Shown: positions 42,816 through 60,726 of the stretch, in pieces
How the letters are laid out: each line of letters begins with the position of its first letter
Numbering within the stretch: position 1 is the first letter of the stretch
NCBI RefSeq assembly: GCF_900156735.1
Contig: NZ_FTOL01000002.1
Location: 434,001 to 498,000 of the forward strand
Direction: 5' to 3'
Length of the DNA stretch: 64,000 bases
From: Chryseobacterium ureilyticum
GTDB taxonomy: Bacteria; Bacteroidota; Bacteroidia; Flavobacteriales; Weeksellaceae
Notes under the pieces: model-generated
Database searches by the model: none
Seen by the model: only the letters and a program-made list of their open reading frames with translations
Told to the model about the DNA's origin: nothing
Position numbers and translations under genes: made by a program

Positions 42816-43400
42816 ATGAAAAAATTACAACGAGAAGACATTCAGATTCTCAGCAGATACAGTGATTTGTCTGAGAAAGATGTCAGTGAAATTCTTAACC
42901 AGAATATTTACAATCAAAAACCAGCGTGGGAAAAATTCTTAAAGCTGATTTTTATAAGCCTTGGTATAGGTTTTACTGTATCCGGGATTATTTTCTTTTT
43001 TGCCTACAACTGGGCAGAATTACCAAAGTTTGCAAAAATCGGATTAACGGAAGCATTAGTTATAGCAACTACTAGCTTAGCTTTATTTCTGAAAATCAAT
43101 AATAATATTCGGAACATTATTCTTACGGGAGCATCGGCGCTTGTAGGAGTTTTATTTGCTGTATTTGGACAGATTTATCAGACGGGAGCCAATGCCTATG
43201 ATTTCTTTCTGGCATGGACTATTTTCATCACTCTTTGGGTAATTGTAGCTGAATTTGCCCCTTTATGGCTTATGTTTATCGCCCTGGTGAATACTACATT
43301 GGTTTTGTATTCACAACAGGTCGTTAAGGATTGGGACGGATCAATTGTCACGACTTTGCTTTTTATTTTAAAGTTTTCAGGAAAAACCTATATCGGTTGA
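42816..43400 (+). pseudogene. DUF2157 membrane protein, 5' part, split by element insertion
   Basis: The first 185 codons are host DUF2157: an N-terminal cytosolic stretch LQREDIQILSRYSDLSEKDVSEIL and several membrane helices. The frame then runs nine codons into element DNA (KFSGKTYIG) and stops. The C-terminal part resumes at 60727. Joining 42816-43372 to 60727-61129 gives 960 bases with one open frame. It is the first gene of the DUF2157 / DUF4401 / GDYXXLXY operon, so insertion probably also cuts transcription of the downstream genes. Confidence 0.92.
43362..43372. repeat. attL core direct repeat
   Basis: TTTATTTTAAA, identical to the copy at 60716-60726. It is the left junction of the element with the host DUF2157 gene. 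Confidence 0.9.
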
Positions 43401-43434
43401 ATACAAGTCTTTTATAGAGATTCTCAAAGAAGTC

Positions 43435-43453
43435 AAGTAACGATTTGGTAACG
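43435..43453. other. Left end motif (candidate integrase arm site)
   Basis: AAGTAACGATTTGGTAACG. A near copy in the same orientation, AAGTAACGTTTTAGTAACC, lies at the other end (60570-60588). Confidence 0.5.
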
Positions 43454-43546
43454 GTGCTTATTGCTTTGCTTTTCAACGTGTTTCCGTTAGCTCAAAGCAA
43501 ATATACAAAATTTTAATTTTTCGTTATCAATATATTTATGCAGTTT

Positions 43547-44449
43547 CTACTCTTCATATATACTTTGAATATTTCTAACAGTTGATTTTAAATCATCAAT
43601 CAAGCTTTGAGGTTTAAGTACTTCAAGGTTTTCTCCAAAGGATAAAAGTTCCATAAAGAAATCGTGTGTAATGAATAGTTTGAGCTGTATTCTTAATTCA
43701 TGTTCATTGTCTATCAAAATTTGTTGAGAATCGTGTAACGGTAATGATTTGATATATTTCCCTTGGAATGCATTGAAAGAAAGAATTACATCTTCTGGCT
43801 GATGACCGTTCGGACTGATAATACCAAAGCAGTATCTATAATGTTCATTTACATCAAAATCCTTTGGGAAGTTGAATTTCTTATTCAAAATTTCTAAATC
43901 TGTTAAACGGTCAAGGGCAAAACTCTTTATCTTATCATCACCTAAATCTTTTGATAAGACATACCATCTGTTTTTGAATTCTTTCAGAGCATATGGTTCT
44001 ACTATGCGTTCAGTTAACTCATCTTCCCAATATTTTTGATACACAAATTTTATTTGAATCTGATTTTTAATAGCATGAAGTACTCCATACAGATGTTCAG
44101 TACCTTGAGGTTTCCGTTTTTCAAAATGAATATGCTTAGAAAGCCTATCTGTTAAATTCAAAGCATTAAAGGTGTCGAAAGCTTCTAATATCCTTTCATT
44201 TGCTTCTGGTTGTTCATCAAAATCTATGTAATAGACTTTTTTAGAAAAGTCAAACAAAATATCGATATTGTATAAAGAACGAATATCGTCTCTATCTCGT
44301 TGAAATGTACGCTTTGAAATATTGAAATTGTAAGCTTGAATTTCTGATTCCAAGGCAAGATATTCTTCAATTTCAGCAAATGTTGCAGGTCGTTTTCTTA
44401 ATTTTTTTATGATGATATTATACCTTGCTATTGATTCTCTTTTTGACAT
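43547..44449 (-). CDS. WYL-domain transcriptional regulator
   Basis: A 300-residue regulator. The N-terminal winged helix (KLRKRPATFAEIEEYLALES; FNISKRTFQRDRDDIRSLYN) is followed by a WYL domain (IKFVYQKYWEDELTERIVEPYALKEFKNRWYVLSKDL) and a C-terminal WCX-type part. Such proteins (BrxR/CapW type) repress defence operons and sense ligand or nucleic acid. It is the last gene of the AAA / phosphoesterase / WYL operon, overlapping the phosphoesterase by 22 bases. Confidence 0.85.
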   Translation of the reverse strand: MSKRESIARYNIIIKKLRKRPATFAEIEEYLALESEIQAYNFNISKRTFQRDRDDIRSLYNIDILFDFSKKVYYIDFDEQPEANERILEAFDTFNALNLTDRLSKHIHFEKRKPQGTEHLYGVLHAIKNQIQIKFVYQKYWEDELTERIVEPYALKEFKNRWYVLSKDLGDDKIKSFALDRLTDLEILNKKFNFPKDFDVNEHYRYCFGIISPNGHQPEDVILSFNAFQGKYIKSLPLHDSQQILIDNEHELRIQLKLFITHDFFMELLSFGENLEVLKPQSLIDDLKSTVRNIQSIYEE

Positions 44450-45000
44450 AACTTATGATAAATAGATGCGTTAATATACTGAATGTTTTTGTATTTTGTT
44501 TTTCCATAGTTGGAATGATTGTGACCAAATATGTGGTATTTTGGTGCCAACTGAAATATAAAATTACTAATTTCTTCACTGCCAAATCCATTGTCTAGAA
44601 TACCGTAAGGAGGGTAATGTGACGCAATGATGTCAATTTTATTTTTCGTTTCAATACCATTATAAAAAGGGAAAGCACTGATTCCCATTATGTTTATTTC
44701 ACTTATTACTATCGCTTCGTCATTTAACCAAATAATGTCTTTAGGAATCAATCTTTTACCCCATTCTGGTTCAAACTCGAAAGGCAAATCATGATTTCCG
44801 TGAATAAATATTTTATGAGGTATTTCTAATTGAGCGTACCATTTAAAAAAATCCAAAACTTCATCCATATCTCCTGCATTACAAATATCTCCACAATGAA
44901 TTACAATCTGAATGTTTTTAGGAATATCGATTAAACGATGTTTGCCATGCGTATCTGATAACAATAAAATGTTTTGGCTTTTAATTTTAATCGTGTGCAT
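44428..45000 (-). CDS. Metallophosphoesterase
   Basis: About 190 residues from MHTIKIKSQN (an ATG at 45012 adds four). All five calcineurin-like motifs are seen: LSDTHG, HCGDICN, HGNHDLPF, IIASHYPP and GHNHSNYG. It hydrolyses a phosphoester, perhaps a nucleic acid or a nucleotide. It overlaps the AAA ATPase gene upstream and the WYL gene downstream, so the three are translationally coupled. Confidence 0.88.
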   Translation of the reverse strand: MHTIKIKSQNILLLSDTHGKHRLIDIPKNIQIVIHCGDICNAGDMDEVLDFFKWYAQLEIPHKIFIHGNHDLPFEFEPEWGKRLIPKDIIWLNDEAIVISEINIMGISAFPFYNGIETKNKIDIIASHYPPYGILDNGFGSEEISNFIFQLAPKYHIFGHNHSNYGKTKYKNIQYINASIYHKLCQKENQ

Positions 45001-46660
45001 AGCCAAATCCAATTTTAGTTGTTTTTGTTATTATGGATTCCTCGCTACAAAATGAATGTATTTCTTCAAAGTTGGTCATTGTGCCGTGAACGATTTCCTG
45101 TATTTCACTTTTACGAATAATATTATCTATCTGTCCACCTGAAAAGTCAAATTTATCTGCGAGTATTTGACAACTCTTTTCATCTAAATGTGATAATTTT
45201 GATTTCCATATTTTAGCTCTTACCTTTTTTGTGGGTTTCTTGAACTGTACTTTAAATAAAAATCTTCGTTCAAAAGCAGTGTCCAAATTATTAGCTAAGT
45301 TGGTAGTTGCCATTAAAATACCTTCAAAGTTTTCAAGCTCTTCCAGTATAATATTTTGAATAGCATTTTCAGTTTGAGCCACATTGGAATTACTGTTTTC
45401 TTTCCTTTTAGAAATAATGGCATCAGCTTCATTGAAAAGTAAAATAGGTGTTAGTTTAGATTCTTTTGCATAAGCTCTGTAATCTGTGAAAATACGTTTA
45501 ATGATTTTTTCACTTTCGCCAAACCACATGGATTTTGACTGACTGATTTCCACTTTCATTATTTCTCTGTCTGTAGCTTTTGCCAATTGTTTTACAATTT
45601 CGGTTTTTCCTGTTCCAGGTGCGCCATGTAACAAAACTGCAATTCCTTTGGGTAAACCTTTATTTGTTAGTCTTGTCTGTGTTTCATTAAACTTGTCTTC
45701 TTGAAGTAAATTTTGAAGTGTTTCTAATTGATTCATCTCGCCCCTATCAAAAACCAATTCACGATAAACAATTTCCGAGGGAATAATGATATTATCTTTT
45801 CTCTTTTTGTTTAGAAAAAGTTTAATGTCACAATCATTCAGAAGTTGAAGAGAAGTGTCCGTCAATCTCATTTCTGTATCATTGAAAAATTGAGCTTCTA
45901 TAATTTCAACCAAATTATTGTTAATAAGGATATGATTGCCAGATAACAATTTTTGTACTTCATTTACTCTCTCTGATGGACTATCATAAATACCATCCAA
46001 AGCTCTTCCAATATCTGTAGATTCATTTCCTGATACTGTTTTCCATATTAGGTACAAAAACATATAAGCATCCTCTGTGCTAAAGTTGAATTGCTTTACT
46101 TTTTCTATTAACGGAAAATGTGTGTTGTCTGCAATCAATTTTTCAACTTCTCGAAATAGTTCAAAGGTTGAAATTTTATCATCGTCCCGTTGGTCGCCCA
46201 GTTTGTATAACTGTTCTAACAAATCTATTATACCATTTATCTTCTTCTTGTTGATTTTGGGCAAAGGTTTGTTTTGCAAAATAGCTTCTGTTATTTTTTC
46301 GTGAATAACAAATTGGTCATTAGCTCCCGCCAATTTCACACGGTGTCTTGATTTCTTTTTTTCAAAAATCCCAACTTTATGTAAATACTCAAAATCATCG
46401 CTGTATTCCAAAATTTTCATTGGATTACAATCAAAATACTCTATCAAATCGTTCAAATCAACAGTGTCTCCTTTGTAGTTTAGAGCAAAAACCATTGCAA
46501 TAAAAAAGGTTTGATTATCCGATGTTTTGAAATATTGGGAAAGTGTATGTAGTTCAGATTTTATGCTTTCAAAAAATAAATTTTCAAGCTTACAATTTTT
46601 TGATTGTTCGTACACTTTCCCAATGCTTTCCAGAATTTGTTTCTTTGTAATACTTGTCAT
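44987..46660 (-). CDS. AAA-family ATPase
   Basis: About 557 residues from the chosen ATG; the longer frame from 46702 would start inside the promoter. The first about 290 residues carry no known motif and are helical. The AAA module follows: Walker A GAPGTGKT, Walker B LLFNEAD (Asn in place of the usual Asp before Glu), sensor 1 ATTN and the box FERRF. The C-terminal part is the AAA lid. Likely a remodelling or sensing ATPase of the operon. It is first in the operon and has a good promoter right before it. Confidence 0.85.
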   Translation of the reverse strand: MTSITKKQILESIGKVYEQSKNCKLENLFFESIKSELHTLSQYFKTSDNQTFFIAMVFALNYKGDTVDLNDLIEYFDCNPMKILEYSDDFEYLHKVGIFEKKKSRHRVKLAGANDQFVIHEKITEAILQNKPLPKINKKKINGIIDLLEQLYKLGDQRDDDKISTFELFREVEKLIADNTHFPLIEKVKQFNFSTEDAYMFLYLIWKTVSGNESTDIGRALDGIYDSPSERVNEVQKLLSGNHILINNNLVEIIEAQFFNDTEMRLTDTSLQLLNDCDIKLFLNKKRKDNIIIPSEIVYRELVFDRGEMNQLETLQNLLQEDKFNETQTRLTNKGLPKGIAVLLHGAPGTGKTEIVKQLAKATDREIMKVEISQSKSMWFGESEKIIKRIFTDYRAYAKESKLTPILLFNEADAIISKRKENSNSNVAQTENAIQNIILEELENFEGILMATTNLANNLDTAFERRFLFKVQFKKPTKKVRAKIWKSKLSHLDEKSCQILADKFDFSGGQIDNIIRKSEIQEIVHGTMTNFEEIHSFCSEESIITKTTKIGFGYAHD

Positions 46661-46677
46661 AAACCTATCTTTTTTGA

Positions 46678-46685
46678 CAAAGGTA
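46678..46685 (-). promoter_or_regulatory. -7 promoter box of the AAA/phosphoesterase/WYL operon
   Basis: On the minus strand TACCTTTG (plus strand CAAAGGTA) matches TAnnTTTG. Transcription would start about 10 bases before the ATG at 46660, which rules out the upstream ATG at 46702. No TTG at ideal spacing. Confidence 0.55.
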
Positions 46686-46753
46686 TATCGAGAGTAAGAC
46701 AAAGCATGGCGTGGTTGTGAAGATAGAATGCTTGTTATTTATGTAAAACCAAA

Positions 46754-46783
46754 CAATTCCGATATTTCTAAATATCGGAATTG
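46754..46783 (-). terminator. Terminator hairpin overlapping the DUF262 stop codon
   Basis: CAATTCCGATATT / AATATCGGAATTG, 13 bp perfect, with the stop codon of the DUF262 gene in the loop; followed on the minus strand by TTTGGTTTT. It separates the two defence operons. Confidence 0.75.
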
Positions 46784-49059
46784 CTCTCATAAAGATTTAA
46801 AACTTCAACAAGAGGGATTAATTCATCAATTAAGTTTTCACAACTTAAAATATAGCAGTTTCTCTCTTCCTCAAATTTAAAAGATGAATGATTGAATTCT
46901 TTATCCAAATTGTAAACAACCCAACTGTTATTGATTTGTTCCAATTCAACACCATTTTTTAAATGTAATCTGCTAAAATTTGAGTATTGAGCACAAGAGT
47001 CAGATTCATTGATATGAATTCTAACATTTTGTGGGCTATGATATCTAAACCAAAATACAAACGGATTATGATGATAAGAATTCAAACTTTGGTTATAAAA
47101 AATTTCAACTTTATTCTCATAATTCTTTGTATAAATAGGGTGGTCAAGTATAGTTTTATACTTGGGGTTTAAACAGTACCATAACCAACTATCTTTATAG
47201 CTTTCTATATTTTCTGAAACTTTGGTTTCAATAAAATTTTGCCAATCACTAATGTTTTCTTTGGAAAATATTTTAAATAACTCTTCAAAATTTGACTTAA
47301 TTTCTTCATCTGGCGATGCTAACACCCGATGCCATTTTCCTTTCTGTCCGAAAAATCTAAACTCTCCCAAGTTTGAGTATCCTACATTTATGGAATAATC
47401 TCCGAAACACAATAATAGACGGATAATATCTTGATAAGATACTTCTCTATACAAGCTATAAAAATTATCTGTAATGTTTTGTAACTCATCATTGGTATAT
47501 GAAGTAAAATCAAAATTGAAAATCAACCCTCTTAATGTTGAATGGTCTTCAATCTTGAAAATTAAATCTTTTCGAAAAATATCATCTTGAAAAAGATTAT
47601 ATTTTGCTATTTCGTATTGAATATACTCTTTTCTAAAAGATACTGGTGTAGTATTCAGATTTTGAAAAGGATTAGATATTGATAACGAAAAAACAGTGTT
47701 TAGTATATCGTTGTAATAATCTGTTCTTAATTCTGAATCTAAAGATGTTTTGTTTTTCTGATTGATATTGTTGATGTAATTTCTAATAATTCGTAAAAAG
47801 TCTTTTAAGTCAGAAGTGACATTTATAGAATCTGCTTTTGCGATATAATTTAACCATCCAAATAATAAAAGATTTTCAAAATGTGAGAAATTATCATTGT
47901 TAAATATTTTCAGAATGGGATTTAGTGATGGCTGGTTAATTGCTATTCTGTCTTTCTGAAATTTTTCAGAGAAAATATCACCAAAATAATCTACCCATTC
48001 GTTGTACCCAAGCCCAATTACTAAATCAAAGATTTGAATTAATATTTGCAGGTTTTCTTCTTTTGAATAAATAATATCAATAGCTACATCATTGAATTGA
48101 TAATTTCTACCAATATTATCTTTATAGTATAGATATTCGGTTATTTTTCTGATAAATGAAAGCATCAATTCATCACATCGCTTCGTGAATTTAGAAACAT
48201 CTTGTTCTACATCGACCGTTTTATTGAAACTTTCAATCGTGAATTTCCAAAAAGCATCTAACCATACACCATCTATTTTTTCTATGAAAAATTTAGATGA
48301 TTTATGTGATGATATTACATTTTCAAAAGAAGCCTTAAAATTTTCAAAGTCTGCAAGAGGTTTACCTCTTGCATTCATTTTTATGTATAAATTGTCGCCT
48401 AATCCGTATTCATTAATTTGTAAAAAGTGAAAATTAACAGGTCGTTTTTCTTTTAATGTTTCGAATGAAATATCTGAAAAAAGTTTTGATACCTCTTCCA
48501 ATGTTTGTAGAATGCCTTTTACAGTTGGGTCATAGTCCCAATTAAGATTGTACCATGGCTGGTTTTTTATTGTACAAACTATTTTTTGCGTGTTTTCTTC
48601 TGTTTCAATTCTTATTTTTTCTATGTTTTCATCTTTATTTAATGATTTTAAAAATTCTTTAGCAGATTGTCTCGTCTTGTAACTAAACAAGTGTAGACCA
48701 TTTTCATAAAAAGACACATCGTCTTTAAAAGCAAGAAACCAATAGATAATATACAGCGTGGTTAATCTTTGCTGACCATCAAGAGGAATAAAAGTTGAAT
48801 TTTCAATATAACCATACACAAAATCTAAATTCAGATATTTATCACTTCCATTTTGACTTTCTCGCATAACGCTGTGTAAATCTTTAAGAAATTTTTCTCG
48901 GATATAAGCCGTTTTTTCATCATTTCGACCTTGAGCATAATCTCTCTGAATCATTGGGATTTCTATTCCATTTTCGATTTGAATATGTTCTTTTGCGATA
49001 TTTTTCCAAACAAAGATATTATTGGTTAATATATCTAAGAGCGTATAATTAATATTCAT
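46768..49059 (-). CDS. DUF262 domain protein (ParB/Srx-like nuclease family)
   Basis: A 763-residue protein. The DUF262 motifs are EIPMIQRDYAQGR and LDGQQRLTTLY near the N-terminus; KMNARGKPLADFENFK follows. The long remainder is AT-rich with no clear second domain and no HNH motif seen. DUF262 proteins such as GmrS/SspE use the DGQQR motif to bind and hydrolyse NTP and control a partner nuclease. It lies six bases after the DUF262-HNH gene; the two likely work as a pair. Confidence 0.82.
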   Translation of the reverse strand: MNINYTLLDILTNNIFVWKNIAKEHIQIENGIEIPMIQRDYAQGRNDEKTAYIREKFLKDLHSVMRESQNGSDKYLNLDFVYGYIENSTFIPLDGQQRLTTLYIIYWFLAFKDDVSFYENGLHLFSYKTRQSAKEFLKSLNKDENIEKIRIETEENTQKIVCTIKNQPWYNLNWDYDPTVKGILQTLEEVSKLFSDISFETLKEKRPVNFHFLQINEYGLGDNLYIKMNARGKPLADFENFKASFENVISSHKSSKFFIEKIDGVWLDAFWKFTIESFNKTVDVEQDVSKFTKRCDELMLSFIRKITEYLYYKDNIGRNYQFNDVAIDIIYSKEENLQILIQIFDLVIGLGYNEWVDYFGDIFSEKFQKDRIAINQPSLNPILKIFNNDNFSHFENLLLFGWLNYIAKADSINVTSDLKDFLRIIRNYINNINQKNKTSLDSELRTDYYNDILNTVFSLSISNPFQNLNTTPVSFRKEYIQYEIAKYNLFQDDIFRKDLIFKIEDHSTLRGLIFNFDFTSYTNDELQNITDNFYSLYREVSYQDIIRLLLCFGDYSINVGYSNLGEFRFFGQKGKWHRVLASPDEEIKSNFEELFKIFSKENISDWQNFIETKVSENIESYKDSWLWYCLNPKYKTILDHPIYTKNYENKVEIFYNQSLNSYHHNPFVFWFRYHSPQNVRIHINESDSCAQYSNFSRLHLKNGVELEQINNSWVVYNLDKEFNHSSFKFEEERNCYILSCENLIDELIPLVEVLNLYESNSDI

Positions 49060-49065
49060 AGGTTT

Positions 49066-50820
49066 CTAAATTTTGGTTTTTACAAAATTCATCTGCTCCT
49101 GAATTTTGAATAAGTATTCATCTCTGTCTTCTAAAGTCCAATAATTAAGGTGTTTTGGATAATCTGAATAGTACTTTAAGAAAGAGTTTTTTGTTGCGTT
49201 TGGTATGTAAAGACCGTTTAGCTCAAAATCAATTATTGACTTTCTTTTCACCCCAAATGCACTATTTCCTAATGAAGAATTTTTTTTCGTATCCAATAAT
49301 GCCATATTAGAAATATGATGTTCTCCAATCAATTTTTCAAATGGTATCTTTGATTTTTTACTGATACTTTCCATATTGTTCTCTTTGTAATCAAGATTTT
49401 CTAAAACTTCTCTGGATAAATCTTCAAATTGTAGTTTAAGGTTTTTTGCATTTGTGTCCTTTAATTCTACAATAAGGTTTTCTATTCTATCAGTTAATTC
49501 ATCATCAGAATCTATTGTTTTAAGAACTTTTTTGTGGTCTTCAAGCCATTGTGAATACTCACTTTGTTTTACATCTAAAGCATTTTGTGGATGGATGTGT
49601 TCCAAACTCCATTTAATTTCTTTAACTTTTAATTGCTTGAAAGGAAATCTATTAGTTTTGGAACGGTATACTTCCATTACATTGAAGAATACTAATGTTT
49701 TTTCAACTTGATTGTAAGAATTTTTATAATCTAAATCTTCAATCTTAATATAACAAAAACGTTCTTCTATTTCCTTGAAAAGGTACTTGACAAATAATGT
49801 CTTGTTGGATTCTTGATACTCCTTTATAAGAATTAGTAGATCGGCACCATCCCAAATAAGTAATCCTACTAAATGATAATATTCGTGATTTGAATACCAA
49901 TCTTGAAGGATGGTAAAATATAAGTCAATTTCATTCCAATTCGACTCAATAAAATCATATTCTTTAGACTCTCTAGATTTAACATAAAGCGGATAGTAAT
50001 ATCTAAAGACATCAAACTCTTCTTTTATCGCTATATTTTTATTTCGTACAATTAGTTGAAAGATATAATCTATTCTGGTTGCTAATTTGTTTTCAGATTT
50101 AGTAATAAAATTCCAAAAATCATCGTTTTGTAAGGCATTTTCTATTTGATTCCATTTGTTAGAAATATCTAATTGATGCGTATATATATCTTTTGATTGA
50201 TTTTCAAAATTCGCTTTACTCAAAAACAATGCTTTTATTAATTCTGCATTAGTTAAACCTATCTTTCCACTATTCAATCGGGTAAATACTTTTACAAGTT
50301 CTTCTCTGTTGCTTTCTTCGACATCGTACCAAATTACTTCAACTTTTTCCAACAGAGTTTGAAAAATATTCATTTCGATATTAGAATCAATTTTTGTTTC
50401 TTTCTTAATGTTCAGCCAAGAATCAATTACTTTGTAAGCATTTGATATGTGTGAGAAATCGGGATTGGAGTAATCAAAAATTCCTGTGTCTAATTTTTTG
50501 AAAAAATCTACACAATTTTGCCTTACTTCAAAATCTAATTGGAATTTTTCATCAATAAATCGTTTGAATCGAGTCAACAATATGTATATGGTTGTTAATC
50601 TCTGCTGTCCATCAATTATTTCATACTTGTTTTCTTCAATCTTACTTACTACAATAGGTTGCAAGCAATAGGACTCTTGTTTAGTCACATACACTTCATA
50701 GATATCATCTAAAAGTTCTTCAACTTGTTTTTTATCCCAACGATAGCCTCGCTGATAGGAAGGGATAAAATAAATATTATCCGAGAAATTTATCTCTTTA
50801 ATTTTTTTAGGTTCTATCAT
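49066..50820 (-). CDS. DUF262 + HNH (DUF1524-like) protein, GmrSD-related
   Basis: A 584-residue protein. IPSYQRGYRWDKKQVEELLDDI and IIDGQQRLTTIYILLTRF are the DUF262 (GmrS-like) motifs. Near residue 400 the segment KWSLEHIHPQNA is the GmrD/DUF1524 His-x-x-Pro nuclease motif. GmrSD proteins are type IV enzymes that cut modified DNA. It is flanked closely (6 bases each side) by the exonuclease and by a second DUF262 gene. Confidence 0.85.
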   Translation of the reverse strand: MIEPKKIKEINFSDNIYFIPSYQRGYRWDKKQVEELLDDIYEVYVTKQESYCLQPIVVSKIEENKYEIIDGQQRLTTIYILLTRFKRFIDEKFQLDFEVRQNCVDFFKKLDTGIFDYSNPDFSHISNAYKVIDSWLNIKKETKIDSNIEMNIFQTLLEKVEVIWYDVEESNREELVKVFTRLNSGKIGLTNAELIKALFLSKANFENQSKDIYTHQLDISNKWNQIENALQNDDFWNFITKSENKLATRIDYIFQLIVRNKNIAIKEEFDVFRYYYPLYVKSRESKEYDFIESNWNEIDLYFTILQDWYSNHEYYHLVGLLIWDGADLLILIKEYQESNKTLFVKYLFKEIEERFCYIKIEDLDYKNSYNQVEKTLVFFNVMEVYRSKTNRFPFKQLKVKEIKWSLEHIHPQNALDVKQSEYSQWLEDHKKVLKTIDSDDELTDRIENLIVELKDTNAKNLKLQFEDLSREVLENLDYKENNMESISKKSKIPFEKLIGEHHISNMALLDTKKNSSLGNSAFGVKRKSIIDFELNGLYIPNATKNSFLKYYSDYPKHLNYWTLEDRDEYLFKIQEQMNFVKTKI

Positions 50821-50826
50821 ATTTTA

Positions 50827-51309
50827 TTATAAACTATTACTTTGCAAATGTATCAAAAACAATTCAGCACAGGCTTTAGCATCACTTAAAGCATCATGAT
50901 GATTTAATGAAATTTTATACTGATTACACAATGACGCTAAATTTTGTCTAAAAAGACGATACGTGCAATGTTTTTCATATTTGGGGTTTTCCATGCCATA
51001 ATATTCCAATGTTTTTTCTAAAACTGGAAAATCAAAGGACAAACCATTGTGAGCTACAACGGCTTGTCCTTTGATATAAGGTTCTAATTTATGCCAGACT
51101 TTGTCAAATGTGAGGGCTTCTTTTGTCATATCTGGAGTAATGCCATGAATATCTATAAATCGATCCCAGTAATAATTATTAGGAGGTTGTATTAATAAAT
51201 TGATTTCATCCGTGACAATACCATTATTGACACGAACAAGCCCAACCTGGCAAATACTCCAACGATAACCTTGTGCAGTTTCAAAGTCTATTGCTGTAAA
51301 ACACTCCAT
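50827..51309 (-). CDS. DEDDh 3'-5' exonuclease
   Basis: A 160-residue DnaQ-like exonuclease: FTAIDFETA (Exo I), VAHNGLSFDFPVL (Exo II) and HHDALSDAKACAE (Exo III with its His). Short, single-domain, like defence-associated exonucleases. Its ATG lies directly after the stop codon of the Cys/His-repeat gene, so coupling is tight. Confidence 0.88.
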   Translation of the reverse strand: MECFTAIDFETAQGYRWSICQVGLVRVNNGIVTDEINLLIQPPNNYYWDRFIDIHGITPDMTKEALTFDKVWHKLEPYIKGQAVVAHNGLSFDFPVLEKTLEYYGMENPKYEKHCTYRLFRQNLASLCNQYKISLNHHDALSDAKACAELFLIHLQSNSL

Positions 51310-51561
51310 TTATAAAGCAGGTGCGTGTTTCCCCTTACCAACACCATTTGGATGTCTATTACAGGTACCACTTGTTAGGCTTGAAAGAGAAGAATACTTT
51401 GTTCCACAATACTTACAGACATACTGCGATTTCTCGCTTCCCTCATATAGTTTATGTTTCCCCTTACCAGCACCATTAGGATGTCGATTACACGTGCCAC
51501 TTGTTAGACTTGATACGCTGGAATACTTTGTTCCGCAATACTCACAATAATAATTTGCCAT
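51310..51561 (-). CDS. Small Cys/His tandem-repeat protein
   Basis: An 83-residue protein made of two almost identical 43-residue units: Y-C-x-Y-C-G-T-K-Y-S-S then T-S-G-T-C-N-R-H-P-N-G and GKGKH. The spacing is C-x2-C-x14-C-x2-H, a zinc-finger-like unit with a basic tail. Probably binds nucleic acid or a partner through zinc. First gene of a four-gene operon (this, exonuclease, two DUF262 genes). Confidence 0.75.
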   Translation of the reverse strand: MANYYCEYCGTKYSSVSSLTSGTCNRHPNGAGKGKHKLYEGSEKSQYVCKYCGTKYSSLSSLTSGTCNRHPNGVGKGKHAPAL

Positions 51562-51696
51562 AATCTATAATATTTTATATTATGCCTACTCTCAAAGTTT
51601 TCAGCTTTCCTTATTTTACATAGCAAAAATACTTAAAGACTAAGTCAATCCGTGTCACACTCTAAATTAAAAAAAATAGCACTAAGAATCTGTATA

Positions 51697-52962
51697 TTAT
51701 CTTCTATGTTTTGGATGTTTTTTCTTCTTCATCCGATTAGCAAACTGCTCTTCTTCGTAATCCTCGCCTTGTGCATCGGATAACAGGCTAAACAATCCCA
51801 AATCGGTATTAGGCGAATGTTCCTGTGAGAGAAACTCAAAAAGGTCTTTTGTCGGTAGATTGTCTATTTCATTTGCTTTAGAAACAGGGTTATCTTGTAT
51901 CTTCAATTCGGGTTTATTGTCATTGTTCCACCAATCGTTAAACATATTTGCCGATAAGTTTCTGTCTAATTGTGAGCCGTTCCAAACGGTTCGAACTTCG
52001 TGATCAATAAAGGTCATACCGTAAATTCGTCCTTCACTATTACGCCTTACAACTGTATTAATACCCTGCTCGGTCAACTGCTTTTTAAAATCTGTTTCGT
52101 TGCTTGTGGTATGTATGGCAAGCTCCACCGTGTTTTTTAGAACAGACCTTGCAGGATTCGCTTTCATTTTCTCTTTGGACTGTTCAAAGTGTTTTTGGAG
52201 TTGTGCCACGCCTGCGTCTTTTCCGAATAAAGATGCTTTGAACGGATTACTTACTTTGTTCCCATTTTCGTCCAATGCCACATAAACCAATCCGTTTACG
52301 GTTTCACCGTTCCGTTCGCCTTTGACTTCTTCCGCTGTGATGTTGAACAGAGACAATAAAGCATTGTAACTGCCCATAGTTGAAAAGCTGTAATATTTTG
52401 GCAGATGCCGTACTACCGAAGCAATCTGACTTTTGATGTCGCCTTTGTGGCAATCCACAGGTTTTAAAACTTTGTTGGCTTGTTTCTGCTCCTGTTGGGT
52501 GGCTTTTTGCAGATTGTATTTCGTTTCCAAATCCCTACAGATTGCCATTGAGCGTTTGTGGTCGTAATCATCGGGTATTTTCTTTCCGTCAATACCTACA
52601 CAAGTTGAAACAATGTGTATATGCGTTCTGTCAATATCCGTATGCTTGAAAACTATGTAAGGTTGATTGCCGTATCCCATACGTTCCATATACTCCTGTG
52701 CCATCGCCGTAAACTGTTCATCGCTGACTTTATCCGCAGGATCTGGGTTCAGTGATATATGCCGTACCGTCTTTTCAGTTTTAATATTTGCAGACAAATA
52801 TGGCTCAAAGCACTTATTAAAATAGGCTAAGGAATACCTGCCGTCCACCGTATCGGGTATCTTGTTCAGTAATAAAACCGCTCCGTTTTCATTGTCCACT
52901 TTCTGCTGATTATATAAAATTGCACCATACATATTGCTTCCTTTTCCAATTTTTGCAATCAT
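51697..52962 (-). CDS. MobB-type relaxase
   Basis: A 421-residue relaxase/mobilization nuclease. N-terminal MIAKIGKGSNMYGAILYNQQKV and the HxH metal motif in HTDIDRTHIHIVSTCVG are typical. It nicks oriT and pilots the strand. The C-terminal part is Lys-rich and charged. It starts 4 bases after MobA, in operon. The Bacteroidetes mobC coupling gene that usually follows is missing; the defence cargo lies there instead. Confidence 0.9.
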   Translation of the reverse strand: MIAKIGKGSNMYGAILYNQQKVDNENGAVLLLNKIPDTVDGRYSLAYFNKCFEPYLSANIKTEKTVRHISLNPDPADKVSDEQFTAMAQEYMERMGYGNQPYIVFKHTDIDRTHIHIVSTCVGIDGKKIPDDYDHKRSMAICRDLETKYNLQKATQQEQKQANKVLKPVDCHKGDIKSQIASVVRHLPKYYSFSTMGSYNALLSLFNITAEEVKGERNGETVNGLVYVALDENGNKVSNPFKASLFGKDAGVAQLQKHFEQSKEKMKANPARSVLKNTVELAIHTTSNETDFKKQLTEQGINTVVRRNSEGRIYGMTFIDHEVRTVWNGSQLDRNLSANMFNDWWNNDNKPELKIQDNPVSKANEIDNLPTKDLFEFLSQEHSPNTDLGLFSLLSDAQGEDYEEEQFANRMKKKKHPKHRR

Positions 52963-52966
52963 ATTT

Positions 52967-53410
52967 TTATTCTTTATTTAGATATTTCTTTTCAAATTCT
53001 TCGGTAAGAATTAAAACCTTTTGCAATAATTCTTTCATTTCTTTGGTCTCCTTTTCCAATTTAAAGAGGTATGCAGATGCTTTTTTATCTGAAAAGTTGG
53101 CGTTCAAAAGCTTTACAATTTGATTGTAATTCGTTGCTATTCCTCGAAACTGACCGAAAAACTTGGTCAAACCTGCGTGGTATTCTATCGCATCCATATC
53201 AATTTTTACGGTCTTTACCGTCTTCTGAAAGATGCTAGCCGTAATGAAATGAGCCGTTACTTTCATTCCCGACTGGTCAAAAAGTGCAAGAAACTTGGCA
53301 CTGTCCTCATCATTCAGATTAAAGGAATACCGATGAACCGCAGGGTCAATCTTCGGTTTTCGCCCTGTCTTTTTAATCTGATTTCTATTTTTCTCTTCCA
53401 TAATATCCAT
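52967..53410 (-). CDS. MobA-type relaxosome protein
   Basis: A 147-residue basic protein: GRKPKIDPAVHRYSFNLNDEDSAKFLALFDQSG opens a ribbon-helix-helix-like domain and a coiled-coil tail follows (LEKETKEMKELLQKVLILTEEFEKK). Such proteins bind oriT beside the relaxase. It could start at MEEKN (53401). The hairpin cluster lies immediately upstream. Confidence 0.85.
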   Translation of the reverse strand: MDIMEEKNRNQIKKTGRKPKIDPAVHRYSFNLNDEDSAKFLALFDQSGMKVTAHFITASIFQKTVKTVKIDMDAIEYHAGLTKFFGQFRGIATNYNQIVKLLNANFSDKKASAYLFKLEKETKEMKELLQKVLILTEEFEKKYLNKE

Positions 53411-53462
53411 TTTTAATTTTTAATAAACGTGCGACTTCGGAGCCGTTTCCAGCCCCCTGCAA

Positions 53463-53560
53463 GGGCAAGTGCTTTTGAGGTGCCGAAATTCATTTCGAGT
53501 ACCTCAAAAGATAACTTGCTCTGAACAGGAGTTCAGAAAAATCCGTTTTGCAAACGGATT
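53463..53560. other. oriT-like hairpin cluster
   Basis: Three hairpins in a row ahead of mobA. (1) 53463-53521: GGGCAAGT/ACTTGCTC outer arms, CTTTTGAGGT/ACCTCAAAAG and CGAAA/TTTCG inner arms. (2) 53521-53536: CTGAAC-agga-GTTCAG. (3) 53540-53560: AATCCGTTT-tgc-AAACGGATT. A fourth inverted repeat GCTGATTGG/CCAATCAGC lies at 53722-53759. The 500-base gap between mobA and DUF3408 has no gene and is the natural place for an oriT. Nick site not identified. Confidence 0.6.
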
Positions 53561-53930
53561 GTAGTTAGCAGGGAAAACCCATAGCTTCCATTACAAATTT
53601 CGGTAAGACTATTTGAATAACAGATATTTACAATCACGACAATGAACGCCAAATGCTACCTTTGAGTGCCACATCAACATAGACTGGAATTGCTTTCGCT
53701 TCCTTTGTATATGGTTAGCTGGCTGATTGGTTATAACCTTAACTATGTAGCCAATCAGCATAAATCCCGACAGCAAATCTGCGTGATTGAATGCAGACGA
53801 ATTACAGATTTTTGAGTTAATGAATTAACCAATTAAGGGTATGCAGGTGCTTAGGTAGTTACATAAATACAACAGTATATACAGCTGATTGCTTAGTTAA
53901 CCAAACAGCTAATTGGATATAATATTAAAA

Positions 53931-54434
53931 ATGAGAGATATGATACACGAAGAAAACAAAAATCAGCAACCCGAAAAAGAGGATTTCTCTATTGAAAATT
54001 TCATAACTGATGAAAATAAACAATCTTTCACGGAACAACAGGCAGTAACACATCGGGAAGATTTTGTCAAACCCAAAGTAGATGAGGAAGCTATTATGCG
54101 TGTAATGGCAGGCGAAGAACCTTCGGAAACTGAAACGGAAAACACAAAAACACCTGAGAGTAATACAAAAAGGATGACTTACAAGCCAAAGAAGCTGACC
54201 AAAGAGGACTACTGCGGACGGTTCTTCAAAATTCCCACGACAACGGCAAGCAGGGGGAAATCAGTGTATGTACGGCAGGAACACCACGAAACATTTAACA
54301 GGCTTACAAATATTATGGGCATCGACAAACTGACGATTTATGCGTATCTGGACAACATTATCGAATACCACTTTCAGGAGTTCGGGGAATTGATTAGGGA
54401 AATCTATGACGAGAAACACAAACCGTTGTTTTGA
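53931..54434 (+). CDS. DUF3408 domain-containing mobilization protein
   Basis: About 167 residues from MRDMIHEENK (an upstream start at 53913 adds six). Acidic N-terminal half, then the DUF3408 region YCGRFFKIPTTTASRGKSVYVRQEHHETFNRLTNIMG. The family is common in Bacteroidetes conjugative elements (TraB-like). It is divergent from mobA across the oriT-like region. Confidence 0.75.
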   Translation: MRDMIHEENKNQQPEKEDFSIENFITDENKQSFTEQQAVTHREDFVKPKVDEEAIMRVMAGEEPSETETENTKTPESNTKRMTYKPKKLTKEDYCGRFFKIPTTTASRGKSVYVRQEHHETFNRLTNIMGIDKLTIYAYLDNIIEYHFQEFGELIREIYDEKHKPLF

Positions 54435-54571
54435 TAACTATACGTGGTGGGTGGTACGTTTCTACCTCTTAAAATTATTTTCCAAAAGAAAAAAACAGAA
54501 AAAAAAGAAAGCCATTTTAACAAGGGGGAAAGGCGGAAAAACCAAAAGGAAACGGAATAAGTCCCGAAGGG

Positions 54572-54620
54572 TGGCAGGGCACACAACAAACTCGGCGAAG
54601 CCACCATATTTGCCCTGCCA
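54572..54620. repeat. 10-bp inverted repeat
   Basis: TGGCAGGGCA (54572-54581) and TGCCCTGCCA (54611-54620), perfect. It lies in the gene-poor stretch behind DUF3408. Role unknown; an alternative oriT or recombination site is possible. Confidence 0.5.
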
Positions 54621-54719
54621 TTATGCCGTAGTCTTTTGGTTGGGTGGTGCGGTGGCTGTCCACCTTATCTTTGCTCCCTTTTTTATTCTTTTTTTAATCA
54701 ATTCCAATCAAAGAAAGGG

Positions 54720-54779
54720 TACAAAAAACACGTAAGGGCTAAGGATAGGGTGTTTTTTGTATGCTTTCCTTTATCCTTA
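54720..54779 (+). other. Potential H-type pseudoknot
   Basis: Stem A: TACAAAAAACAC (54720-54731) with GTGTTTTTTGTA (54750-54761). Stem B: TAAGGATA (54740-54747, in the loop of A) with TATCCTTA (54772-54779). The two interleave, as in an H-type pseudoknot. It lies upstream of the 54943 gene. The region 54435-54942 otherwise holds no gene I can support. Confidence 0.45.
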
Positions 54780-54942
54780 CAAAACTCTTTAAATGTGTGA
54801 GGGCTTTGCGAGGAAAATTTAAAGTGTTTTGAGGATTACTTTCTATTCATGTTGTGCCAACATAAGCTAAATACTGCCACATAATGCCAAATGAAAACAA
54901 TACATTCCCTTGTGTTCTATATTGGGTGCAAATTTTGAACCT

Positions 54943-55308
54943 ATGGCACAAAAAGTAATACCTGACAAAGAGCAGAAAGAGAAAGAACATAGTCCTTTGA
55001 TACAGGTTGATAAGCAGAGCGACCCGATTTCCAATTTCATCGCTAATTTAAAACGTCAGTTCAGGGAAGCAAAAGGCTTAATAGATTGGAACAAACTATT
55101 CGGGGGAAAACGTACTGAACAACAAAAGCAGACTTCCGAACCTGAAAGCATAATAGGTGCGACAAAAACGCTTATCCGTTCGGACTTCAAAAATGAAGAA
55201 AAAAATCAGGCTATACAGACCAATAAAAAGCCTGCTTTAAAAAAGGAAAATACAATCATAACGCAACAGTCTCGTCCTAAAAGTAATAAACCAAAGTTAG
55301 GATTATAG
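54943..55308 (+). CDS. Element protein of unknown function
   Basis: About 121 residues from MAQKVIPDKEQKEKEH (a TTG start at 54910 adds eleven). Highly charged, no membrane segment or motif; FIANLKRQFREAKGLIDWNKLFGG is the only structured-looking part. Found between DUF3408 and the HTH pair, so probably an element maintenance or mobilization gene. Confidence 0.5.
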   Translation: MAQKVIPDKEQKEKEHSPLIQVDKQSDPISNFIANLKRQFREAKGLIDWNKLFGGKRTEQQKQTSEPESIIGATKTLIRSDFKNEEKNQAIQTNKKPALKKENTIITQQSRPKSNKPKLGL

Positions 55309-55312
55309 CCTA

Positions 55313-55338
55313 GTATTTGGCAACTGTACGCCAAATAC
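55313..55338. promoter_or_regulatory. Inverted repeat ahead of the HTH pair
   Basis: GTATTTGGC-aactgtac-GCCAAATAC, 9-bp perfect arms, 22 bases before the first HTH gene. Candidate operator or Xis-binding site. Confidence 0.5.
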
Positions 55339-55360
55339 CGCCATCGGATGCAACATTAAA

Positions 55361-55705
55361 ATGACCTATGTGAATAGCTTTTATTTTAGAGGTTTAAATG
55401 ATGCAGATATGGAAATAACAGTTTTAGACATTCAGATTTTGAAAGCATTGCATAGGGAAGTTAAGGAAGTTTCCAATTTGATAGCGGAAATGACTACACC
55501 CTACAAAGCACTGCAACAGGCAACTAAATGGCTCGACCAACAGGAAGCCTGCCAATTGCTCAACATCAGCAAAAGAACGTTGCAGACGTATAGGGCAAAA
55601 GGCATTCTTGGAGCAACGCAAATTAATCGGAAAACGTATTTCAGATTATCCGAAGTGGAGTTAATTATGCAGGGAGAGCGACCATTAAAAAAGCAAAAGA
55701 AATGA
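55361..55705 (+). CDS. HTH (excisionase-like) protein 1
   Basis: A 114-residue protein with the MerR/excisionase-type HTH WLDQQEACQLLNISKRTLQTYRAKGILGATQINRKTYFRLSEV. In Bacteroidetes elements pairs of such proteins control excision and mobilization. Four-base overlap (ATGA) with the next HTH gene. Start may be later (55409). Confidence 0.8.
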   Translation: MTYVNSFYFRGLNDADMEITVLDIQILKALHREVKEVSNLIAEMTTPYKALQQATKWLDQQEACQLLNISKRTLQTYRAKGILGATQINRKTYFRLSEVELIMQGERPLKKQKK

Positions 55706-55983
55706 AACAGATTGGAAATTCAAACGAAGATACGCTTGCCTTGCTCGAAACTGTGGTAGGCATCAAAAATGAACTGTTGTATATCAGAGAATATTTCCAC
55801 CCATTACTAAAAGGGGAAATCTACCTGTCAGGCGAACAGGTTTGCGAGATGTTACATATAAGCAAACGGACATTGCAACAGTACAGAGATGACGGACTGA
55901 TACCTTTTATCAAACTCGAACGGAAAATCCTTTTCCGTGAAAGCGATATTGTAAAAGTATTGGAAGATAACTATCAGCGTTAG
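55702..55983 (+). CDS. HTH (excisionase-like) protein 2
   Basis: A 93-residue paralogue of the gene before it (YLSGEQVCEMLHISKRTLQQYRDDGLIPFIKLERKILFRESDIVKVLED). Translationally coupled through an ATGA overlap. Likely works with the integrase as a recombination directionality factor. A terminator lies about 50 bases downstream. Confidence 0.8.
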   Translation: MKQIGNSNEDTLALLETVVGIKNELLYIREYFHPLLKGEIYLSGEQVCEMLHISKRTLQQYRDDGLIPFIKLERKILFRESDIVKVLEDNYQR

Positions 55984-56032
55984 CCCATTAAATGAATGCT
56001 TTGAAACTGTAACCCGTATCGGTCAATTAAAG

Positions 56033-57135: not shown

Positions 57136-57138
57136 TTT

Positions 57139-59207: not shown

Positions 59208-60464
59208 TCAGAGGCTCGCAACAAAGGACTCCTCCATACCCTTAAATTTATGCGATACCTTTTGCATATCCTTTCCGACTTTCTCGTTGAGTATCTTGGC
59301 GTAAATCTGAGTGGTAGCAATGTTTTTATGCCCTAGCATCTTGCTCAAACTTTCAAGCGGAACACCCTCGCTTAAAAACAGAGTGGCAAACGTATGACGT
59401 GCCAAATGAAAGGTTACTTTCTTTTCTACAAGGCAGTCAATCAGTTGAGATATTCTCTTTAAGCTGTCATTACAAACCGTATTTGATGGTACAGGAAATA
59501 CCTTTCCGTCCTTTGACAATCCTGCATATTTTTCAATAATCATTTTCGGAATATCCAAGAGCATCACGTTTGACGATGTAGCCGTTTTCTTTCTACGTAC
59601 AATAATCCACTGGTTACCATCAAAGAAATCCTGAATATTACTGTTTTTAAGTCCTTTCATATCCGAATAGGAAAGCCCCGTAAAACAACTGAAAACAAAC
59701 ATGTCTTTAACTAATTCGTCTTTCTTTTTCTCGCAGTTGAACGTTACGAGCTGTTCCAATTCATTACGCAACAGATAACCACGGTCTTTATCCTTTTTGG
59801 TATTCTTGTACTCGCTGAACGGATTAAAAGCAAGGTGCTTTCTGCTCATTGCCAATCGGCAAAGTGTAGTAAATCCAATCATATACAGCCAAATGGTGTT
59901 GTGTGTTAAACTTTGGTCGTCACGCAGGTAGTAATCAAAGTCCTGCACAAAATCAGGTGTAAGGTCGTTAAAGGGCACATCGGAATAGCCGTATTTTGTA
60001 AGTGCAAAATTTTGAAGATGTTTCAAAAGTATTTTGTATTTACTGCGTGTGCCATTCACTCGAAGTCCACTATTAACCTTTTTCTCATAGTCGGACAGGA
60101 ACTGTTCATAGAATTTGAAAAAGGTCAATTCTCCGCTTTCCATTCCAAGAACGGCATTTTTAAGTTTAGCACTGTTTACAGCTCCCTCGTTCTTCAGGAT
60201 TTTGGAATAGCATTCCTCAATACCCGAACGAATTTTGTCAAGTTTGCTGTTTGTGTCTTGGGCTTCTCGGCTTTTACCTAAAACCCTGCCGTACTTCAAA
60301 TCCCAATTTGTTGCGGAAATATCCAGCTTTGTACTGAATGCAGACTGTTTGCCGTTTACGGTAATCCTGCACATAACCGTGACTTTTCCGTTTTTCTTTG
60401 GGGCGTTCTTTTTAAGGTAGAACAATACCTTAAACGTTGATTTTTTTGTCGTTTCCATACTCAC
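59208..60464 (-). CDS. Tyrosine site-specific integrase (IntDOT-like)
   Basis: A 418-residue integrase with an arm-binding N-domain, a SAM-like core-binding domain and a catalytic domain. Catalytic residues: Arg356 in FHLARHTFA, His379 in MLGHKN, Tyr388 in TTQIYAK. The first catalytic Arg is replaced by Ser265 (CFTGLSYSD), the same change known in IntDOT of CTnDOT. It drives integration at and excision from the 11-bp core. It is next to the right end of the element. Confidence 0.93.
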   Translation of the reverse strand: MSMETTKKSTFKVLFYLKKNAPKKNGKVTVMCRITVNGKQSAFSTKLDISATNWDLKYGRVLGKSREAQDTNSKLDKIRSGIEECYSKILKNEGAVNSAKLKNAVLGMESGELTFFKFYEQFLSDYEKKVNSGLRVNGTRSKYKILLKHLQNFALTKYGYSDVPFNDLTPDFVQDFDYYLRDDQSLTHNTIWLYMIGFTTLCRLAMSRKHLAFNPFSEYKNTKKDKDRGYLLRNELEQLVTFNCEKKKDELVKDMFVFSCFTGLSYSDMKGLKNSNIQDFFDGNQWIIVRRKKTATSSNVMLLDIPKMIIEKYAGLSKDGKVFPVPSNTVCNDSLKRISQLIDCLVEKKVTFHLARHTFATLFLSEGVPLESLSKMLGHKNIATTQIYAKILNEKVGKDMQKVSHKFKGMEESFVASL

Positions 60465-60715: not shown

Positions 60716-60726
60716 TTTATTTTAAA
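60716..60726. repeat. attR core direct repeat
   Basis: TTTATTTTAAA, identical to 43362-43372. Confidence 0.9.

What the first reader, a model, noticed from the sequence alone, without database searches (positions are those of the whole stretch)
43547..46685. AAA ATPase / metallophosphoesterase / WYL regulator operon: candidate undescribed defence system
Three overlapping genes with their own promoter and a hairpin terminator behind the upstream operon, inside an element rich in defence genes. WYL regulators (BrxR/CapW type) often control defence operons. The pairing of a large AAA ATPase that has Asn before the Walker B Glu with a stand-alone five-motif phosphoesterase is not one I can name as a described system.
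Basis: partly seen in the sequence, partly recalled or inferred. Interest (0 to 1): 0.75.

Follow-up and report, generated by a model that had tools for sequence, protein, structure and literature searches.

The report
WYL-linked AAA and phosphodiesterase defence-island module
Three overlapping genes on a mobile DNA element, for a protein-unfolding motor, a phosphodiesterase and a nucleic-acid-sensing regulator, belong to a set of genes that keep turning up together, in changing combinations, in bacterial anti-phage islands; I found no described defence system that matches them, and whether they protect against phages has not been tested.

Summary
In detail: AAA (44987-46660), phosphoesterase (MPE, 44428-45000) and WYL regulator (43547-44449) overlap by 14 and 22 nt, with a -7 box upstream and a hairpin behind the preceding gene. 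They ride on a 17-kb mobilizable element inserted in a DUF2157 gene. Immediate AAA-MPE-WYL order was seen only here and in two near-identical copies. The recurrent core is AAA+WYL: WYL within 10 kb of 4 of 11 AAA loci other than the window's, 0.15 expected. The MPE is an optional partner: WYL near 12 of 22 MPE loci, AAA near 6 of 22, window included. A cREC 'cyclic-phosphate' domain is fused to two MPE relatives or lies near AAA/WYL in four other loci. The neighbouring DUF262 pair is exchanged while the trio stays 98% identical. Best reading: a WYL-switched accessory module of defence islands, in which a Vps4/p97-like unfoldase acts on partner defence proteins and the MPE hydrolyses a cyclic-phosphate signal. 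Protection is untested.

The parts
44987..46660 (-). AAA ATPase, 557 aa: N-terminal helical region (winged-helix-like by my reading of the model), then a classical AAA domain with Walker A GAPGTGKT, Walker B LLFNEAD (Asn-Glu), pore loop MWFGESEK, sensor 1 ATTN, arginine fingers ERRF
44428..45000 (-). Metallophosphoesterase (MPE), 190 aa, closest solved structure by sequence profile MPPED2; all five motifs intact; PADLOC PDC-S10
43547..44449 (-). WYL transcription regulator, 300 aa: N-terminal winged helix, WYL, WCX; fold closest to DriD, then PafBC, BrxR, CapW
46678..46685 (-). Bacteroidetes -7 promoter element TACCTTTG, 25 nt before the AAA start
   Evidence: consensus TAnnTTTG recalled
46751..46786 (-). 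16-pair hairpin behind the DUF262 gene, terminator-like with a weak T tail
46768..49059 (-). DUF262b (GmrSD_N, DGQQR motif, no EHIxPQ): neighbouring cargo, exchanged in the Myroides copy
49066..50820 (-). DUF262a (GmrSD_N plus weak GmrSD_C, DGQQR and EHIHPQ motifs): neighbouring cargo, exchanged in the Myroides copy
50827..51309 (-). DEDDh 3'-5' exonuclease, neighbouring cargo
51310..51561 (-). Small zinc-finger protein with two near-identical repeats, neighbouring cargo
51697..53410 (-). MobB relaxase (51697-52962) and MobA (52967-53410) of the carrier element
59208..60464 (-). Tyrosine integrase of the carrier element
43362..43372 (.). Element end, 11-bp direct repeat TTTATTTTAAA; homology to both relatives starts at 43360
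60716..60726 (.). Other copy of the 11-bp direct repeat; the joined flanks give one 319-codon DUF2157 frame

Best explanation
The trio is an operon of overlapping genes with a probable promoter of its own, carried as defence cargo by a mobilizable element. Its recurrent core is AAA + WYL; the phosphodiesterase is an optional partner that also pairs with WYL on its own. Proposed working: (1) inferred: the WYL protein, folded like DriD, binds a nucleic-acid or nucleotide ligand made during infection (ssDNA most likely) and switches the cassette on. (2) inferred: the AAA protein forms a hexameric Vps4/p97-type unfoldase that threads and remodels a protein substrate, most likely an effector or restriction protein encoded next door (DUF262 pair, type I R-M), which keeps it in check or activates it. 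(3) inferred: the MPE, like the cREC domain that is fused to two of its relatives, hydrolyses a cyclic-phosphate ligand (cyclic nucleotide or RNA 2',3'-cyclic end) and so resets or processes the signal. Shown: gene structure, conserved catalytic residues, recurrent co-location, and exchange of the DUF262 pair beside a constant trio. Not shown: expression, any enzymatic activity, any ligand, any phage protection.
For: Co-location: WYL within 10 kb of 5 of 12 AAA places in the phylum sample (0.16 expected); without the window's own, 4 of 11 (0.15 expected, Poisson P 2e-5). In 53 AAA loci of at least 15 kb against 40 control regions: WYL 22 v 0 (P 4e-7) and MPE 7 v 0 (P 0.016); any window-derived exemplar other than WYL 14 v 0 (P 2e-4), and without L035 and L036 12 of 51 v 0 of 40 (P 5e-4). 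WYL starts 0-12 nt behind the AAA on the same strand in 7 loci. From the MPE side, window included: WYL in 12 of 22 loci, AAA in 6 of 22. At E 1e-20 the only 2 MPE-bearing plasmids of 72,556 are both among the 15 AAA-bearing ones, 8-9 kb apart. Sibling elements carry defence genes behind MobB. cREC: fused to MPE in L131 and L269, directly upstream of the AAA in the Myroides copy L035, also in L060, L127 and L032; 6 of the 30 cREC loci fetched have a WYL within 1.5 kb; a published prediction links cREC, cyclic phosphates and WYL (PMC7824862, passages). Unfoldase: nearest folds are proteasomal ATPases/PAN, ATAD1/Msp1 and Vps4, with a nearly invariant pore-loop tryptophan. WYL fold: DriD first. 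Module independence: DUF262 pair swapped in L035 while 43360-46716 stays 98.2% identical; DUF262a and b identities covary (rho 0.73) but hardly with the AAA (rho 0.19 and 0.20).
Against: In L119 and L120 (one genus) the AAA lies between the same neighbours without WYL or MPE, so it may have a non-defence role there. 7 of the 12 AAA places of the phylum sample have no WYL within 10 kb (one of these, in G355, has a stop inside the frame). In that sample the window is the only one of the 12 with an MPE in its 20 kb. MPE relatives outside the near-identical copies are mostly of another subfamily, and the Kaistella-type loci L270-L272 share one arrangement, so they are not independent. cREC is common in the family (104 of 246 genomes), so the link holds for a minority of cREC genes. 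Nothing shows that the AAA acts on DUF262 or R-M proteins; AAA and DUF262 identities hardly covary. Walker B Asp to Asn could weaken ATP hydrolysis.
Confidence: 0.45

Rival explanations
1. Stand-alone defence system, the first reader's reading: AAA+MPE+WYL alone protect against phage. The WYL senses infection, the AAA activates the MPE, and the MPE attacks nucleic acid or depletes a nucleotide.
For: Overlapping genes, probable own promoter, constant sequence while the DUF262 neighbours are exchanged; trio adjacent in another arrangement in L087 and within 10 kb in L132, L270-L273; PADLOC lists the MPE family as candidate PDC-S10.
Against: AAA-WYL most often lacks the MPE; MPE-WYL and exonuclease-MPE occur without the AAA. 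No nuclease motif recognised beyond the MPE.
Confidence: 0.22
2. One seven-gene system: zinc finger, exonuclease, DUF262a, DUF262b, AAA, MPE and WYL work together as a multi-part restriction system with exchangeable DUF262 specificity.
For: All seven are co-directional and fill the stretch between MobB and the element end; the C. balustinum plasmid keeps the order zinc finger-exonuclease-DUF262a-DUF262b-AAA-(small gene)-WYL; DUF262 pair with AAA in 10 fetched loci besides the window.
Against: Probable promoter and hairpin between DUF262b and AAA; DUF262 and AAA identities hardly covary; many AAA-WYL pairs have no DUF262 nearby.
Confidence: 0.2
3. Passenger genes: the AAA is a housekeeping protein-quality ATPase, and the three genes are merely co-carried by island turnover.
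For: AAA without WYL or MPE between fixed neighbours in L119 and L120; variable order and partners; sibling elements carry unrelated genes there.
Against: AAA-WYL co-location is about 27 times background in the context-blind sample without the window, and starts are coupled within 0-12 nt in 7 loci.
Confidence: 0.1
4. A divergent IetAS-type or TRIP13-type remodeller.
For: PADLOC IetA 2.2e-26 and TRIP13 3.3e-14, over the AAA domain and its close surroundings only.
Against: No subtilase beside it; score far below the IetA curated cut-off (83 v 510 bits); a true IetA, with IetS, lies behind MobB in L288 and is only 26% identical to this AAA.
Confidence: 0.03

Closest known systems
DriD / PafBC / BrxR / CapW WYL transcription factors
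   Same: Winged helix + WYL + WCX architecture; fold matches in the order DriD, PafBC, BrxR, CapW; placed at the end of a defence-island operon
   Different: Not shown to regulate anything; sequence match to PDB entries only over the WYL part
MPPED1/2 class III cyclic-nucleotide phosphodiesterases
   Same: All five catalytic motifs; best solved matches 3rl4, 3rl3, 3rl5 (MPPED2, E 2.8e-46 to 3.4e-43 with a profile)
   Different: Shorter than most relatives, lacking about 15-25 residues in the middle; substrate unknown. The class III label for the MPPED family is taken from an abstract in a listing (PMC10547211)
IetAS (IetA ATPase)
   Same: AAA domain family; an IetAS pair lies behind MobB in a sibling element
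   Different: No IetS subtilase, different N-terminal region, Asn-Glu Walker B, WYL partner
Vps4 / Msp1(ATAD1) / p97 unfoldases
   Same: Classical AAA fold with pore-loop tryptophan, sensor 1 and arginine fingers
   Different: Walker B Asp replaced by Asn; N-terminal region without a Pfam match
PADLOC candidate PDC-S10
   Same: The MPE scores 3.2e-49
   Different: Named there as a candidate of its own; the tool's output shows no link to AAA or WYL, and no paper naming it was found

Membership tests
IetAS defence system | IetA ATPase over its curated score | tested here: not met
   NF042959 83.3 bits against a cut-off of 510
IetAS defence system | Adjacent IetS subtilisin-like protease | tested here: not met
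   Neighbours are MPE, WYL and DUF262; no peptidase among the 19 proteins of the element and its edges scanned with Pfam
CBASS with TRIP13 | CD-NTase and HORMA partners beside the AAA | tested here: not met
   None among the 19 proteins scanned with Pfam or the 6 with PADLOC
WYL transcription factors (BrxR/CapW/DriD type) | N-terminal winged helix, WYL, WCX | tested here: met
   Pfam WYL+WCX; model with helices 2-18, 23-37, 45-59 and wing strands, mean pLDDT 85.9; fold hits
WYL transcription factors (BrxR/CapW/DriD type) | DNA operator binding and ligand response | not testable with these tools
   Needs EMSA or reporter assays
Class III cyclic-nucleotide phosphodiesterase | Five metal-binding motifs | tested here: met
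   DTH, GDI, GNHD, ASHYP, GHNH; motif set recalled
Class III cyclic-nucleotide phosphodiesterase | Hydrolysis of cyclic nucleotides | not testable with these tools
   Needs enzyme assay
Classical AAA unfoldase | Walker A, sensor 1, arginine fingers, aromatic pore loop | tested here: met
   motif roles recalled
Classical AAA unfoldase | Walker B Asp-Glu | tested here: not met
   Asn-Glu, invariant in the 52 rows of A3. 44 of these rows were gathered with patterns one of which holds NE; 7 come from the whole-protein search, and one is the window
Anti-phage defence system | Located among defence genes above background | tested here: met
   Window-derived exemplars other than WYL in 12 of 51 AAA loci (L035, L036 left out) v 0 of 40 controls
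Anti-phage defence system | Protection against phage | not testable with these tools
   Needs plaque assays

The most novel reading that the evidence does not exclude
A new signal-gated immunity module: an Asn-Glu AAA unfoldase and an ssDNA-sensing WYL switch form the core, with interchangeable cyclic-phosphate-processing partners (MPPED-like phosphodiesterase or cREC domain) that reset the signal. It controls exchangeable DUF262 restriction pairs carried beside it on mobilizable elements.
Probability: 0.2. Interest if true: 0.78.

Novelty: new variant of a known kind. Interest (0 to 1): 0.52.

Why it matters
If right, it ties together three loosely known pieces of bacterial immunity (WYL sensors, MPPED-like phosphodiesterases and the predicted cyclic-phosphate-processing cREC domain) and gives a concrete, testable ligand question. 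It also shows an AAA unfoldase family, marked by an unusual Walker B, travelling with restriction genes that are exchanged beside it. That suggests a control or self-protection role, which I did not find described for DUF262 enzymes in the searches made.

Tried and rejected
IetAS and CBASS-TRIP13 readings fail the partner test. BREX was not pursued; no BREX gene appeared in the window proteins scanned.

Phage origin: no match to the AAA in 50,697 phage records at E 1e-15. The BFVD fold search gave generic AAA-type hits in the 50 rows shown, some of them unnamed.

Papers: PDC-S10, metallophosphoesterase + AAA ATPase + WYL + defence system, DUF262 + anti-phage (listing only), tandem DUF262 phrasings (listing only), MPPED + antiphage, AAA ATPase + WYL domain + Bacteroidetes + defense. 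Searches found no papers. One search found 15 and one search found nine; I opened none of these, and no title names an AAA-WYL or AAA-MPE system. Only the held open library was searched. The RNA-repair review cited for cREC was not held.

Not counted as evidence: sigma-70-type promoter matches (59 found, 47.1 expected). Single-gene tests for DUF262b, exonuclease, HsdR, McrB and the two Fic types are not significant alone; McrC and the two Leo genes gave 0 of 53. One search also gave 20 of 53 v 0 of 40 for all eleven exemplars other than WYL. Five of these exemplars came from AAA loci, two of which (L066, L071) are among the 53 and so match themselves; I therefore rely on the recount with window-derived exemplars only (14 of 53, 12 of 51 without L035 and L036).

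Rows dropped or uneven: searches used 53 of the 91 loci L035-L125 (those of at least 15 kb). One search clustered 98 loci, of which 96 hold an AAA gene called by my simple ORF picker; L078 and L093 lost theirs. Control regions were placed by me at round coordinates on long contigs of genomes already in hand. The pairs of loci behind the correlations are not independent.
Full report
OBSERVATION. The three genes exist as described, on the minus strand: AAA 44987-46660 (557 aa), metallophosphoesterase (MPE) 44428-45000 (190 aa), WYL 43547-44449 (300 aa). Overlaps are 14 and 22 nt. Pfam supports all three. The AAA has Walker A GAPGTGKT, LLFNEAD in place of a DE Walker B, pore loop MWFGESEK, sensor 1 and two arginine-finger candidates; the MPE has all five motifs. 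A TACCTTTG -7 box starts 25 nt before the AAA ATG, and a 16-pair hairpin lies behind the preceding DUF262 gene. The position of the -7 box is not chance in the family: 30 of 89 AAA genes have TAnnTTTG within 120 nt upstream, 25 of the 30 at 22-36 nt, against a mean of 6.1 in shuffles.

CARRIER. Homology to two near-identical relatives starts at 43360. An 11-bp direct repeat at 43362 and 60716 bounds a 17.35-kb element with MobA/MobB, a tyrosine integrase and McrB(EVE)+McrC. Joining the flanks at the repeat gives a single 319-codon DUF2157 frame. The relatives are in Myroides sp. N17-2 (L035) and Sphingobacterium alimentarium (L036). Among 395 genomes of the order, 8 (the window's own included) carry the Mob block at the threshold used. 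I looked behind MobB in 4 of the 7 others. In L286 a type IIG R-M gene and PDC-S06 follow MobB directly. In L288 IetAS lies about 6 kb further on, on the same strand. In L287 and L289 the four proteins that I scanned (three and one) gave no PADLOC match. The ends of these four elements were not mapped, so that the IetAS pair belongs to the element is likely but not shown.

THE DUF262 PAIR IS EXCHANGED. Between the window and L035, DNA identity is 98.2% over 43360-46716 (the trio) and 88.8% over 50722-55985. The DUF262 pair in between is only 32% and 29% identical at protein level. L036 keeps the window's pair (97% and 95%). Over 11 loci (window included), DUF262a and DUF262b identities covary (rho 0.73) but hardly follow the AAA (0.19, 0.20); the pairs of loci are not independent. 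The pair looks like a unit of its own, the trio another.

CONSERVATION OF THE TRIO. A whole-protein search of 395 genomes of the phylum with the AAA gave 12 AAA places in 11 genomes, the window included. WYL matches in the same genomes (26 in 41.7 Mb) lie within 10 kb of 5 of the 12 (0.16 expected); without the window 4 of 11 (0.15 expected, P 2e-5). In this sample only the window's locus has an MPE match in its 20 kb. Clustering 98 loci put a WYL-family gene in 47 of them, starting 0-12 nt behind the AAA on the same strand in 7. Against 40 control regions of 20 kb, 53 AAA loci of at least 15 kb had WYL 22 v 0, MPE 7 v 0, DUF262a 7 v 0. Window-derived exemplars other than WYL were found in 14 of 53 v 0 of 40, and without L035 and L036 in 12 of 51 (P 5e-4). 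All 5 MPE-bearing loci of those 51 also have a WYL. Starting from the MPE instead, two searches gave 22 loci with the window included: AAA in 6, WYL in 12. Three of the six (L270-L272) share one arrangement. The MPE directly follows a DUF262 gene in L126 and L266, and a DEDDh exonuclease in L128, L267 and L274. Among 72,556 plasmids, 15 hold the AAA and 2 the MPE at E 1e-20; the 2 are among the 15, with the genes 8-9 kb apart. Against the reading: immediate AAA-MPE-WYL order occurs only in the window, L035 and L036. The closest MPE clade is just the window, L035, L036 and L126. In L119 and L120 the AAA lies between the same neighbours without WYL or MPE.

WHAT THE PARTS ARE. AAA: the model (mean pLDDT 84.6, pTM 0.50) shows two helix-rich N-terminal segments that end in strand pairs, which I read as winged-helix-like (my reading; no search matched them), then an AAA domain. 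Fold hits are proteasomal ATPases/PAN, ATAD1/Msp1 and Vps4; sequence hits are VCP-like and AFG2. Asn410, Glu411 and the two arginines are invariant and Trp379 nearly so over 52 rows. MPE: profile match 2.8e-46 to MPPED2. WYL: winged helix, WYL and WCX; fold hits in the order DriD, PafBC, BrxR, CapW. WYL proteins of this group bind ssDNA: PafBC and DriD by titles and abstract starts in the listing, SiwR by its abstract, CapW by a PDB title. [quoted passage not shown]

CYCLIC-PHOSPHATE LINK. MPE relatives in L131 and L269 are fused to cREC_REC, PF20274; in L269 the fusion is followed by a WYL gene. The Myroides copy L035 has a stand-alone cREC gene (2.8e-27) directly upstream of its AAA. L060 (between AAA and WYL), L127 (beside a WYL, about 3 kb from the MPE) and L032 (about 6 kb from the AAA) also carry cREC; 0 of 40 controls do. 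The window itself has none. cREC is common in the family (104 of 246 genomes at E 0.001, 95 over the cut-off), mostly as a form of about 120-160 codons in the window's genus. Of the 30 cREC loci fetched, 6 have a WYL within 1.5 kb; one of these is L269 again, and two (L317, L318) look alike. The authors who named cREC proposed that it processes cyclic ADP-ribose or 2',3'-cyclic ends, and noted its association with WYL (PMC7824862, passages). This is the main reason why I assign the MPE to a cyclic-phosphate signal rather than to DNA.

MECHANISM. I commit to an accessory, WYL-switched module. The WYL protein senses ssDNA or a related ligand, the AAA unfoldase remodels a partner defence protein, and the MPE removes or processes a cyclic-phosphate ligand. 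Only the gene structure, the co-location and the residues are shown; every functional step is inference. The main alternatives are a stand-alone three-gene defence system and a single seven-gene system.

NOVELTY. Each part belongs to a known family, and PADLOC already lists the MPE family as a candidate. The AAA-WYL core with exchangeable MPE/cREC partners was not found described in the held library, which leaves out most subscription papers. I therefore file it as a new variant of a known kind: a defence-island module, not a categorically new one.

Noticed in passing
window 46768-51309: Exonuclease-DUF262a-DUF262b recurs as a cassette of its own, with a WYL just upstream in L030, L083 and L094 (the DUF262b of L083 is weakly matched); DUF262a has DGQQR and EHIHPQ, DUF262b only DGQQR, like a nuclease/non-nuclease pair. 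It may be an undescribed two-subunit GmrSD-like system.
   Followed up: partly
window 56098-59031: McrB with an EVE domain plus McrC in the same element.
   Followed up: no
window 51310-51561: Small zinc-finger protein made of two near-identical repeats, beside the exonuclease in L029, L035, L036, L040 and beside the MPE in L132 and L273.
   Followed up: no
L029 7953-14706: C. balustinum plasmid: the AAA gene is annotated as two CDSs, a 77-aa gene takes the MPE place, and LeoBC/LeoA dynamin-like defence genes follow the WYL.
   Followed up: partly
L071, L132, L273: In relatives of the window's family the AAA sits just behind type I R-M HsdR, in L071 and L132 with a YgjP-like metallopeptidase-family gene in between.
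   Followed up: partly
L276 5200-9647: Segatella hominis plasmid: an S8 peptidase gene and an ATP-binding protein gene (an IetAS-like layout, by annotation only) lie next to the MPE.
   Followed up: no
L119, L120: AAA family member between conserved neighbours without WYL or MPE, possibly a housekeeping version.
   Followed up: no
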